A DNA stretch of 64,000 bases from Dyella amyloliquefaciens (lineage in GTDB: Bacteria > Pseudomonadota > Gammaproteobacteria > Xanthomonadales > Rhodanobacteraceae), in NCBI RefSeq assembly GCF_004296575.1, contig NZ_SAYT01000007.1, forward strand, positions 124,001-188,000, written 5' to 3'. The notes beneath the pieces are model-generated. The model did not search any database. It saw nothing but the letters and a program-made list of their open reading frames with translations, and was not told the origin of the DNA. This document shows, piece by piece, positions 47,222-54,388 of this stretch; the stretch's first letter is position 1, and every line of letters starts with the position of its first letter. The translations under genes were made by a program, and so were the position numbers.

Positions 47222-47248
47222 AACGCCGCCCTCGGGCGGCGTTTTTTC
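47222..47248 (+). terminator. Intrinsic terminator after the glycine-zipper gene
   Basis: A 9-bp stem (47222-47230 with 47235-47243), CTCG loop and a run of six T. It isolates the arginine leader from upstream transcription. Confidence 0.92.
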
Positions 47249-47267: not shown

Positions 47268-47296
47268 TTGCATGGCAGCGAAAATCCCGTCATGAT
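47268..47296 (+). promoter_or_regulatory. Candidate promoter of the arginine cluster
   Basis: TTGCAT (47268-47273), 17 bp, CATGAT (47291-47296), a moderate sigma70 match. It would start transcription near 47303, about 20 bases before the leader ORF. Confidence 0.45.
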
Positions 47297-47321
47297 TAAG
47301 GTTCTACCACCCGGAACACCC

Positions 47322-47426
47322 ATGTCCGCAGCCGTCTATACCGCTACTGTCCTTACCAGTGCCCGCATGGCCGCTGGGATGACGTCGCGTGCTCGCCGAC
47401 CGCTGGTCCGACATCTGGCCGGGTAG
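47322..47426 (+). CDS. Candidate 34-residue leader peptide of the arginine cluster
   Basis: A 34-codon ORF (ATG 47322, TAG 47424-47426) lies between the candidate promoter and a terminator in front of argF'. It has five Arg codons (15, 23, 25, 26, 30), four of them within eight codons (SRARRPLVR), and ends six bases downstream of codon 31. No homology is recognised and the ribosome site (GGAA eight bases upstream) is weak. The role as a sensor of Arg-tRNA is inferred from its position and from RNA pairing that overlaps its stop codon. A chance ORF cannot be excluded from one sequence. Confidence 0.5.
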   Translation: MSAAVYTATVLTSARMAAGMTSRARRPLVRHLAG

Positions 47427-47487
47427 GCTGTCGCACGCGTTTCATGTGTATCGACGACAAAACCCGGCCTGCAGCCGGGTTTTTTTG
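47417..47487 (+). promoter_or_regulatory. Putative attenuator: antiterminator strand plus intrinsic terminator before argF'
   Basis: The terminator has a 9-bp stem (47460-47468 with 47474-47482), loop CTGCA and a T-run, and ends 40 bp before argF'. The 8-mer GGCCGGGT at 47417-47424, covering the last leader codons and the stop, is perfectly complementary to ACCCGGCC at 47462-47469, the 5' arm of the terminator. The two pairings exclude each other. A ribosome stalled at the Arg codons would leave the 8-mer free; one at the stop codon would cover it. Confidence 0.6.
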
Positions 47488-47526
47488 TTTCCGGAATCCG
47501 AAGTTTCGACCAGGACACTCACCAAC

Positions 47527-48534
47527 ATGACCCTCCGCCACTTTTTGACCACCCAGGACTACAGCCGCGCCGAGATCGATGCGTTGCTTGAACAGGCCGC
47601 CGCCTTCAAGCGCTCGCCTCGCGGCCAGCAGCTGGCCGGCAAGTCGGTGGCGCTGATGTTCTTCAACCCGTCGATGCGCACGCGCACCAGCTTCGAGCTG
47701 GGTGCGTTCCATATGGGTGGCCACGCCATCGTGCTGGCGCCGGGCAAGGACGCGTGGCCGATCGAGTTCGAGGTCGGTACCGTGATGGACGGCGATACCG
47801 AAGAGCACATCGCCGAAGTGGCGCGCGTGCTGTCGCGCTATGTGGACCTGATCGCCGTGCGCGCCTTCCCGAAGTTCCAGGACTGGTCGGTGGATCGCCA
47901 GGACAACGTGATCAAGGCGTTCGCCAAGTACGCCACGGTACCGGTGATCAACATGGAAACCATCACCCATCCGTGCCAGGAACTCGCGCACGCCATGGCG
48001 ATGAAGGAACACCTGGGCAGCCTGCAGAACAAGAAGTACGTGCTGACCTGGACCTATCACCCGAAGCCGCTCAACACCGCTGTGGCCAACTCGGCGTTGC
48101 TGATCGCCACCAAGATGGGCATGGACGTGACCTTGCTGTGCCCGACGCCGGACTACGTGCTCGATGAGCGCTACATGGAGTTTGGCTACCAGAACGCCAA
48201 GGAAAACGGCGGCTCGCTGAAGGTCAGCCACAACATCGAAGAGGCCTACAGCGGCGCCGACGTGGTCTATGCGAAGAGCTGGGGCGCGCTGCCGTTCTTC
48301 GGTCGCTGGGATCAGGAAAAGCCGATCCGTGACGCGCACAAGCACTTCATCGTCGACGAACAGAAGATGGCGTTGACCAACAACGGCCTGTTCAGCCACT
48401 GCCTGCCGCTGCGCCGCAATGTGAAGGCCACCGATGCGGTGATGGATTCGCCCGCCTGCATCGCCATCGACGAAGCCGAGAACCGCCTGCACGTGCAGAA
48501 GGCGGTGATGGCGTCGCTGATCGGCCAGCGCTGA
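47527..48534 (+). CDS. argF': N-acetylornithine carbamoyltransferase
   Basis: 335 residues. It transfers the carbamoyl group to N-acetylornithine, giving N-acetylcitrulline, the Xanthomonas-type route. The carbamoyl-phosphate motif is FFNPSMRTRTSFE (residues 45-57). The residues that mark the acetylornithine enzyme are present: W77 in KDAWPIEFE, E92, and K300 in PLRRNVKATDAV (the carboxylated lysine in the studied enzyme). HPKPLNTAVANS and the C-terminal DEAENRLHVQKAVMA also match. True ornithine carbamoyltransferases have STRTRTSFE and lack W77. It heads the arginine cluster, 40 bp after an intrinsic terminator. Confidence 0.95.
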   Translation: MTLRHFLTTQDYSRAEIDALLEQAAAFKRSPRGQQLAGKSVALMFFNPSMRTRTSFELGAFHMGGHAIVLAPGKDAWPIEFEVGTVMDGDTEEHIAEVARVLSRYVDLIAVRAFPKFQDWSVDRQDNVIKAFAKYATVPVINMETITHPCQELAHAMAMKEHLGSLQNKKYVLTWTYHPKPLNTAVANSALLIATKMGMDVTLLCPTPDYVLDERYMEFGYQNAKENGGSLKVSHNIEEAYSGADVVYAKSWGALPFFGRWDQEKPIRDAHKHFIVDEQKMALTNNGLFSHCLPLRRNVKATDAVMDSPACIAIDEAENRLHVQKAVMASLIGQR

Positions 48535-49687: not shown

Positions 49688-50881
49688 ATGAGCAAAGACA
49701 TCGTCCTCGCCTTCTCCGGCGGCCTCGACACCAGCTTCTGCGTCCCCTACCTCAAGGAGCGCGGCTGGGCTGTGCATACCGTGTTCGCCGACACCGGCGG
49801 CGTGGACGCCGAGGAGCGCGCCTACATCGAGCAGCGCGCCAAGGAGCTGGGCGTGGCCAGCCACGTCACCGTGGACGGTGGCCCGGCGATCTGGGCTGGC
49901 TTCGTGAAGCCCTTCGTGCAGGCCGGCGAGGCCTACCAGGGCCAGTACCCGCTGCTGGTATCCGATCGCTACCTGATCGTGGACGCCGCCATCGCGCGCG
50001 CCAAGGAACTGGGCACCAAGGCCATCGCCCACGGCTGCACCGGCATGGGCAACGACCAGGTGCGTTTTGACCTGGCGGTGAAGGCGCTGGGCGACTATGA
50101 GATCGTCGCGCCGATCCGCGAGATCCAGAAAGAGCACACCCAGACGCGTGCCTACGAGCAGGCCTACCTGGAAGAGCGCGGCTTCGAAGTGCGCGCCAAG
50201 CAGAAGAGCTACACCATCAACGAGAACCTGCTGGGCGTGACGCTTTCCGGCGGCGAGATCGACCATTGGAAGACGCCGGGCGAAGGCGCCCGCGGCTGGT
50301 GCAAGCCACGCGCCGAATGGCCGTCCGAGAAGCTGTCGGTGACGATCGGCTTCGAGCAGGGCGAGGCGGTTTCGCTCAACGGCGAGAAGCTGCCGGGCGC
50401 CAAGCTGCTGGCCAAGCTCAACGAGCTGTTCGCGCCGTACGGCGTGGGCCGCGGCATGTACACCGGCGACACCACCATCGGCCTCAAGGGGCGCATCGTG
50501 TATGAAGCGCCGGGCCTGATCTCGCTGCTCGCCGCACACCGTGCGCTGGAAGAAGCCGTGCTGACCAAGCAGCAGAACCGCTTCAAGCCGGAAGTGGCGC
50601 GCAAGTGGGTGGAGGTTGTGTACGAAGGTTTCTACCACGACCCGATCAAGACCGACCTCGAGGCGTTCCTCGCTTCCAGCCAGTCCTGCGTGAACGGTGA
50701 AGTGGTGCTGGAAACCAGCGGCGCCATGGTCACCGCGGTGGAAGTGCGTTCCCCGCACATCCTCAACGCCAAGGGCGCGACGTACGCGCAGTCGGCCGAC
50801 TGGGGCGTGGCCGAGGCCGAGGGCTTCATCAAGCTGTTCGGCATGAGCAGCACGCTGTGGGCCGAGGTCAACCGCAGCTGA
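49688..50881 (+). CDS. argG: Argininosuccinate synthase
   Basis: 397 residues. It joins citrulline and aspartate with ATP. The PP-loop ATP motif is [13 protein letters not shown] (residues 6-18); [13 protein letters not shown] and the [16 protein letters not shown] segment fit the family. In this pathway it acts after the acetyl group has been removed by argE'. The start at 49688 is the family start; the longer frame from 49631 adds unrelated residues. A GTCAT-type repeat separates it from argE'. Confidence 0.97.
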
Positions 50882-53431: not shown

Positions 53432-54388
53432 ATGAGCACGACCAAGCATCGCATCGGCATCGTCGGCGCACGCGGCCATACGGGCGCCGAAGTGATCCGG
53501 CTGGTGGCAGCGCATCCGGCGCTGGAACTGGCCTTCGTTTCCTCGCGTGAGCTCAACGGGCAGCGCGTGGCCGACCAGGTGGAAGGCTTCCAGGGCGAGT
53601 TGCGCTACGCCAGCCTCGATCCCGAGGCCGTGGCGGCGCAGAGCGCCGACGTGGTGGTGCTGGCCCTGCCGAACGGCAAGGCGGAGCCGTACGTGGAAGC
53701 GATCGACAAGGCCAAGCCGGAGACGCTGGTCGTCGATCTGTCCGCCGACTATCGCTTCAACGAGAAGTGGTACTACGGCTTGCCCGAGCTCACCCGCGGA
53801 CGCTGGCGTGGCGAGAAGCGCATCAGCAATCCAGGTTGCTATGCCACGGCGATCCAGCTATCCATCGCTCCGCTGAAGGACTTGCTGGCGGCGCCCCCGG
53901 TGAGCTTCGGCGTGTCGGGCTACTCGGGCGCGGGCACCACCCCCTCGGACAAGAACGACCCGGAAAAGCTGCGCGACAATTTGATGCCGTATTCGCTCAC
54001 GGGGCACATGCACGAGAAGGAAGCGAGTCGCCATCTCGGCGTGCCGGTGGAGTTCATGCCGCACGTGGCACCGCATTTCCGCGGCCTTACGGTCACCACC
54101 AACCTGTATCTGTCGCGCCCGGTGAAGCGTGAGGACATCGTCAGCCGCTTCCATGGTGCCTATGACGGCGAGAAGCTGGTGCGTGTCGTCGACGAGGCGC
54201 CCTGGGTGAGCCAGATCGCGCACAAGCACCATGTCGACATCGGCGGTTTCGCCGTATCCAACGACGGCAAGCGCGTGGTGGTGGTGGCGACGCTGGACAA
54301 CCTGCTGAAGGGTGCTGCGACGCAGGCCATGCAGAACATCAACCGCGCCATCGGCGTGGACGAGTACACCGCGATTCCGCTTGCCTGA
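53432..54388 (+). CDS. argC: N-acetyl-gamma-glutamyl-phosphate reductase
   Basis: 318 residues. NADPH-dependent reduction of N-acetylglutamyl phosphate to the semialdehyde. The Rossmann motif is [17 protein letters not shown] (residues 8-24), the catalytic cysteine is in SNPGCYATA, and the active-site His is near [10 protein letters not shown]. It starts 3 bp after the synthase/kinase gene, so the two probably share ribosomes. A hairpin repeat follows at 54390. Confidence 0.96.

What the first reader, a model, noticed from the sequence alone, without database searches (positions are those of the whole stretch)
47303..47527. Candidate Arg-codon leader peptide and transcription attenuator controlling the arginine cluster
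Between a moderate promoter and argF' lie a 34-codon ORF with Arg at codons 15, 23, 25, 26 and 30, then an intrinsic terminator (47460-47482 plus T-run). The 8-mer GGCCGGGT (47417-47424), overlapping the last leader codons and the stop, is a perfect complement of the terminator's 5' arm (47462-47469). Geometry fits: a ribosome stalled at codons 25-26 would leave the 8-mer free to block the terminator, while a ribosome at the stop codon would cover it and let the terminator form. Classic amino-acid attenuators (his, trp, leu) work this way; I do not know of a described arginine attenuator in Xanthomonadales.
Basis: partly seen in the sequence, partly recalled or inferred. Interest (0 to 1): 0.8.

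Follow-up and report, generated by a model that had tools for sequence, protein, structure and literature searches.

The report
Arginine attenuator with fixed leader peptide
A short coding sequence followed by a transcription stop signal in front of the arginine-making genes very probably acts as an arginine-supply switch found widely in one bacterial order, and in part of that order its little peptide has become fixed in sequence, which the textbook mechanism does not require.

Summary
In all 103 argF' upstream regions taken from four Lysobacterales families, a short ORF carries [GS]MTSRARR and a terminator follows. A complement of the terminator's 5' arm is found in 102 of 103, in 99 starting 15-18 nt after the last conserved Arg codon. 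Antiterminator and terminator letters vary together (32 of 34 loci; at least three changes on the tree). In 28 of 34 loci from other families of the order, unrelated leaders carry Arg runs, the classic design (by eye). The ArgR repressor was not found in 59 of 61 relatives. In Xanthomonas the leader matches sRNA-Xoo5 (RF02242), mapped just before N-acetylornithine carbamoyltransferase, so that "sRNA" is probably a leader RNA. Best reading: attenuation by Arg-tRNA supply, with a possible nascent-peptide contribution in one clade.

The parts
47268..47296 (+). promoter-like block TTGCAT-17-CATGAT
   Evidence: similar block in 50 of 51 family-f1 loci, 0 of 51 shuffled (listed); no hit in the consensus scan; function inferred
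47322..47426 (+). leader ORF, 34 codons, MSAAVYTATVLTSARMAAGMTSRARRPLVRHLAG
   Evidence: motif in 103 of 103 f1-f4 loci
47361..47402 (+). conserved block A-R-M-A-A-G-M-T-S-R-A-R-R-P (codons 14-27)
   Evidence: codons 20-26 encode the same residues in 103 of 103 while synonymous letters vary
47397..47399 (+). CGA, last conserved Arg codon (26), followed by CCG
   Evidence: CGA in 102 of 103 loci against 2.8% of 217 Arg codons in nine window genes
47417..47424 (+). antiterminator 8-mer GGCCGGGT
   Evidence: complement of 47462-47469; a complement in 102 of 103 loci, 99 of them 15-18 nt after the Arg codon
47459..47486 (+). intrinsic terminator (stem 47459-47483, T-run to 47486)
   Evidence: a terminator in 103 of 103 loci
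47527..48534 (+). argF', N-acetylornithine carbamoyltransferase
   Evidence: NF003384, 613 bits against cut-off 288
49688..50881 (+). argG
   Evidence: NF003385
51014..52108 (+). argE-type acetylornithine deacetylase
   Evidence: NF006439
52112..53428 (+). acetylglutamate kinase-synthase
   Evidence: NF003386; AA_kinase plus NAT domains
53432..54388 (+). argC
   Evidence: TIGR01850
54459..55754 (+). argH
   Evidence: TIGR00838

Best explanation
A ribosome-mediated transcription attenuator that reports the supply of charged arginine tRNA. Transcription starts just upstream of the leader ORF. When charged Arg-tRNA is short, the ribosome waits at codons 23-26, above all at the rare CGA codon 26. 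Its leading edge then lies short of the 8-mer at 47417, which pairs with the terminator's 5' arm, so polymerase reads on into argF' and the arginine genes behind it. When arginine is plentiful, the ribosome reaches the stop codon at 47424, covers the 8-mer, and the terminator forms. Shown: anatomy, conservation, linked stem changes, near-fixed spacing, ArgR not found. Inferred: transcription start, stalling, direction of the response, and co-transcription of the cluster.
For: Motif in 103 of 103 f1-f4 loci, terminator in 103 of 103, antiterminator in 102 of 103. Arg codon to antiterminator spacing is nearly constant (sd 1.07 nt) while antiterminator to terminator varies (26-57 nt, sd 4.67). 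Stem letters go together in 32 of 34 loci where both could be read (of 37), and the argF' tree needs at least 3 changes of the antiterminator letter and 4 of the terminator letter. RNAalifold gives the terminator with the full leader and the antiterminator without the 3' arm in two of three sets. Arg-run leaders of unrelated sequence in 28 of 34 loci of other families. ArgR found in only 2 of 61 relatives, and those two show no leader before their argF-like gene. Leader Arg codons are mostly CGU/CGC/CGA, the set read by tRNA-Arg(ACG) (present; decoding recalled). In Salmonella's his leader CGA is read slowly and relieves attenuation (PMC4046918, passages). A small RNA covering this leader was seen on Northern blots in Xanthomonas (PMC3039613, passages).
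Against: No arginine-response data. A classic attenuator does not need a fixed peptide around its control codons. The Xoo5 bands (about 130 and 100 nt) are shorter than the roughly 159 nt predicted to the terminator end in Xanthomonas. A protector pairing upstream is not convincing (8 of 49 loci beat 95% of shuffles). Six of 34 loci outside f1-f4 have no such leader (L100, L106, L296, L297, L300, L306). The script found no antiterminator in L086 nor in 4 of the 28 Arg-run loci (L104, L287, L288, L301), and implausible ones in L102 and L303. Three further f4 loci with the peptide (L284-L286) have antiterminators no better than shuffles (35-82% as good). ArgR was sought by one Pfam domain only; other arginine regulators were not.
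Confidence: 0.87

Rival explanations
1. The leader peptide is an arrest peptide: the nascent chain A-x-x-A-[AS]-G-M-T-S-R-A-R-R stalls the ribosome at CGA-CCG, helped or set by a small molecule (arginine or a pathway intermediate), rather than by tRNA charging alone.
For: Protein-level conservation ends about one codon after CGA and reaches back about 13 residues, the reach of the upper exit tunnel (tunnel distances recalled); N and C termini vary across families. Pro follows in 96 of 103. The peptide group lies on one side of one tree branch. Arrest motifs of the type R-A-P-P are known (PMC7897499, passages).
Against: Relatives carry plain Arg runs in its place. Stalling gives expression here, so a stall induced by arginine would have the wrong sign for a biosynthetic cluster. 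No structure or toeprint.
Confidence: 0.3
2. The conserved product acts in trans: the terminated RNA (Xoo5) is a regulatory sRNA, or the free peptide has its own target.
For: Xoo5 was found as an sRNA (PMC3039613, passages). The attenuator products peTrpL and rnTrpL have trans roles (PMC7298713, passages).
Against: The window scores only 27 bits against the Xoo5 gathering score of 50, so the RNA as a whole diverges between families. Peptide ends vary. Of 120 copies located by pattern, 116 stand before argF' and 4 are cut off by the locus end.
Confidence: 0.1
3. An ordinary terminator and a chance ORF, with no regulation.
For: The Arg count in the ORF alone is not significant (P = 0.08).
Against: Conservation, linked stem changes and near-fixed spacing.
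Confidence: 0.02

Closest known systems
his, trp, leu, thr attenuators of Proteobacteria (design recalled)
   Same: leader ORF with codons for the end product, antiterminator near the ORF's end, intrinsic terminator before the first gene
   Different: senses arginine; in the f1-f4 clade few Arg codons but a fixed peptide and a locked rare CGA codon; no clear protector pairing
sRNA-Xoo5 (Rfam RF02242), Xanthomonas oryzae
   Same: same RNA at the same place, upstream of N-acetylornithine carbamoyltransferase; 8 of 8 Xanthomonadaceae loci tested score 119-150 bits
   Different: catalogued as an sRNA; the passages read give no ORF, terminator switch or arginine role
speF leader orf34 (SpeFL), Salmonella
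   Same: 34-codon leader with consecutive Arg codons; ribosome pausing in low arginine favours expression (PMC6386406, passages)
   Different: Rho-dependent termination, mRNA decay and translation control of a decarboxylase; no Pfam match for our peptide
ArgR repression of arginine genes
   Same: same pathway, low arginine turns genes on (recalled)
   Different: DNA-binding protein; not found in 59 of 61 relatives
peTrpL/rnTrpL, Sinorhizobium
   Same: attenuator leader peptide and RNA as products
   Different: trans roles reported there (PMC7298713, passages), untested here

Membership tests
ribosome-mediated transcription attenuator | leader ORF under selection as coding sequence | tested here: met
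   103 of 103 f1-f4 loci; of six columns in codons 0-7 with at least three minority letters, five are third positions
ribosome-mediated transcription attenuator | control codons for the pathway's end product | tested here: met
   R-A-R-R in 103 of 103; Arg runs in 28 of 34 other loci, by eye
ribosome-mediated transcription attenuator | intrinsic terminator before the first gene | tested here: met
   103 of 103
ribosome-mediated transcription attenuator | mutually exclusive antiterminator, with compensatory change | tested here: met
   102 of 103; 95 of 103 with at most 5% of mononucleotide shuffles as good; letters linked in 32 of 34 with at least three changes on the tree
ribosome-mediated transcription attenuator | protector (1:2) pairing | tested here: inconclusive
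   8 of 49 loci
ribosome-mediated transcription attenuator | read-through rises on starvation for the amino acid | not testable with these tools
   needs a reporter or RNA-seq
Rfam RF02242 Xoo5 | score at or above the gathering threshold of 50 bits | tested here: not met
   window 27 bits, E 8.8e-4; met by 8 of 8 Xanthomonadaceae loci
nascent-chain arrest peptides | conserved residues near the stall site | tested here: met
   block of about 14 codons ending at CGA-CCG; the stall site is inferred
nascent-chain arrest peptides | peptide-dependent stall | not testable with these tools
   needs toeprinting
SpeFL (DUF2618) | sequence homology | tested here: not met
   no Pfam match at E 1 for three leader peptides

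The most novel reading that the evidence does not exclude
A hybrid switch: an Arg-run attenuator, the design of the other families, turned once, in the f1-f4 clade (which includes Rhodanobacteraceae and Xanthomonadaceae), into a programmed arrest peptide whose nascent chain and CGA-CCG codon pair together set the stall that reports arginine supply.
Probability: 0.35. Interest if true: 0.82.

Novelty: new variant of a known kind. Interest (0 to 1): 0.68.

Why it matters
Arginine is not among the amino acids I know (recall) to have a described his/trp-type attenuator on its biosynthetic genes. Here one seems to serve much of an order in which ArgR was mostly not found, including Xanthomonas, Stenotrophomonas and Lysobacter. 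It gives a likely function to the catalogued sRNA-Xoo5, and the contrast between plain Arg runs and a fixed peptide in neighbouring clades makes it testable how a tRNA-sensing leader can evolve towards an arrest peptide.

Tried and rejected
Chance ORF: rejected on conservation. Rfam at gathering thresholds: nothing in the window. Consensus promoter scan: nothing. Protector helix between the 5' UTR and the antiterminator: not convincing. A similar leader before carA at 20 loci of 21 genomes: none consistent. NCBIfam and Pfam for three leader peptides: none. The motif elsewhere in the class: 5 of 369 genomes, all in the same order (at most 22 candidates per genome were scored). Literature: the capped listings showed no arginine attenuator for biosynthesis genes in this order; 11 papers were opened, as passages only. 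RNAalifold on the divergent f1 set (15 sequences) gave no clean terminator or antiterminator. The automatic frame choice misread 3 of 28 leaders (L292, L302, L313), so its codon counts are rough. I had first taken L061 and L098 as independent switches of the stem; the tree supports at least three changes but not their direction, because the other families mostly carry the GCTGGG/CCCAGC set, so retention is possible.

Full report
What is there. They stand before a cluster whose first gene is N-acetylornithine carbamoyltransferase, followed by an FMN-binding-domain protein, an OsmC-like protein, argG, argE, a fused acetylglutamate kinase-synthase, argC and argH.

Is it more than chance? Within the window the evidence is modest: P = 0.08 for the Arg count; 17 of 1000 shuffles give as good an antiterminator. 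So I compared relatives. I took argF' upstream regions from 111 genomes: 51 were best-matching loci of two searches and 60 were chosen by me to spread over genera and families. All 103 from families f1-f4 (71, 27, 2 and 3) carry [GS]MTSRARR in a short ORF before argF'; the 8 from f5-f8, f10 and f11 do not. The peptide filter was mine, but within f1-f4 no locus was dropped. A pattern free at Ser and Arg third letters occurs in 46 of 61 relatives, exactly the f1-f4 genomes of that sample, with one extra copy in one genome and one hit for the reversed control.

RNA switch. A terminator was found in 103 of 103, and an antiterminator of at least 6 pairs to its 5' arm in 102 of 103 (not L086). In 99 of these it begins 15-18 nt after the last conserved Arg codon, while the terminator starts 26-57 nt further on; the stop codon lies 24 nt after that Arg codon in 91 of 103 and elsewhere (3-27 nt) in 12. 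Stems differ by family in step: 67 of 71 f1 loci have GCCGGGT/ACCCGGC/GCCGGGT; 24 of 27 f2 loci have G[CT]TGGG with CCCAGC; L061 in f1 and L098 in f4 carry the f2-type set. L066, L070, L074, L086, L087, L091, L093, L095-L097 and L099 have weaker, wobble, shorter or no pairing. On the argF' tree the linked letters go together in 32 of 34 loci where both could be read (37 looked at; L117 and L285 are wobbles; none read in L118, L194 and L284), with at least 3 changes of the antiterminator letter and 4 of the terminator letter; direction is not settled. RNAalifold on 56 f1 and 26 f2 sequences returns the terminator, and the antiterminator once the 3' arm is removed; a third set of 15 does not.

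Other families. By eye, 28 of 34 loci from f5-f11 have different leaders with Arg runs (such as RRRR, LRRRRT, VVVRRRP) and a terminator; L100, L106, L296, L297, L300 and L306 have none. Of the 30 genomes, three f4 loci carry MTSRARR and one (L295) has no upstream sequence. Automatic scoring finds a terminator of score 37.5 or more in all 28, against 31.5 or less or none in the other six, and an antiterminator in 24 of 28, in 15 of them with at most 5% of shuffles as good; the L102 and L303 ones are implausible, and those of the three f4 loci L284-L286 are no better than shuffles. Two f9 loci use a different stem, GCCAGGTT/AACCTGG. ArgR was found in 2 of 61 relatives, both f12, where an ORF ends a few bases before the argF-like gene and no leader or terminator is seen.

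The fixed peptide. On a tree of 58 argF' proteins the MTSRARR group of 36 is one side of one branch (100/99); the Arg-run loci lie outside it, L287 (RDRRP, a long branch) nearest. Among 98 distinct sequences, six columns of codons 0-7 have at least three minority letters, five of them third positions, so the protein sequence is selected. Two codons are locked beyond that: TCG for Ser and CGA for the last Arg, each 102 of 103, although CGA makes up 2.8% of 217 Arg codons in nine window genes and 1.7% of 866 in 50 argF' genes. In the wider listing (capped) three f4 genomes have CGT instead; one of these (L097) is the exception counted in the 103. In the Arg-run leaders CGA is also raised (38 of 148 against 8.5% of 389 in argF'; rough). 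CGU, CGC and CGA are read by tRNA-Arg(ACG) (recalled), present in this genome together with TCT, CCT and CCG tRNAs (23 loci scanned). In Salmonella the same tRNAs read CGA more slowly than CGU or CGC, and CGA in the his leader relieves attenuation (PMC4046918, passages). So CGA looks like a tuned stall codon; the reason for the fixed residues is open, and arrest by the nascent chain is the most interesting candidate.

Already catalogued RNA. A permissive Rfam search gives RF02242 Xoo5 over 47365-47428 at 27 bits, below the 50-bit threshold; the other eight hits of that search are weaker. Eight of eight Xanthomonadaceae loci give 119-150 bits, and in the three alignments shown the model begins 2 nt before the leader's ATG. 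PMC3039613 (passages) mapped Xoo5 in Xanthomonas oryzae by 5' RACE between PXO_00354 and PXO_00353, the latter named N-acetylornithine carbamoyltransferase, with Northern bands near 130 and 100 nt. The passages I read call it an sRNA and give it no function. The predicted terminated RNA in Xanthomonas is about 159 nt (56 + 103), longer than the bands, so processing or another end must be allowed.

Verdict. An arginine-specific attenuator found widely in the order, known as an RNA in one genus but, so far as my searches show, not as a switch; with a conserved peptide that may add a layer.

Noticed in passing
window 47222-47246: A terminator-like hairpin with T-run right after the upstream glycine-zipper gene, seen by eye and not listed by the scan; if real it separates that gene from the leader.
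   Followed up: no
window 47356-47377: Leader codons around 12-19 can form a hairpin (CCAGC/GCTGG in many f1 loci) just before the control codons in the RNAalifold model; possibly a polymerase pause hairpin.
   Followed up: no
L011 upstream end: The contig end reads like sequencing-adapter translation (VGSEMCIRDS, recalled as a known artefact).
   Followed up: no
PMC3039613, table of sRNA-Xoo1 mutant proteins: Argininosuccinate synthase and N-acetylornithine carbamoyltransferase are listed as lowered in a mutant of another sRNA, Xoo1, in the same paper.
   Followed up: no
L307, L310: In two f9 loci the antiterminator pairs with the terminator's loop and its flanks (CTTTGG with CCAAAG) rather than only the 5' arm.
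   Followed up: partly
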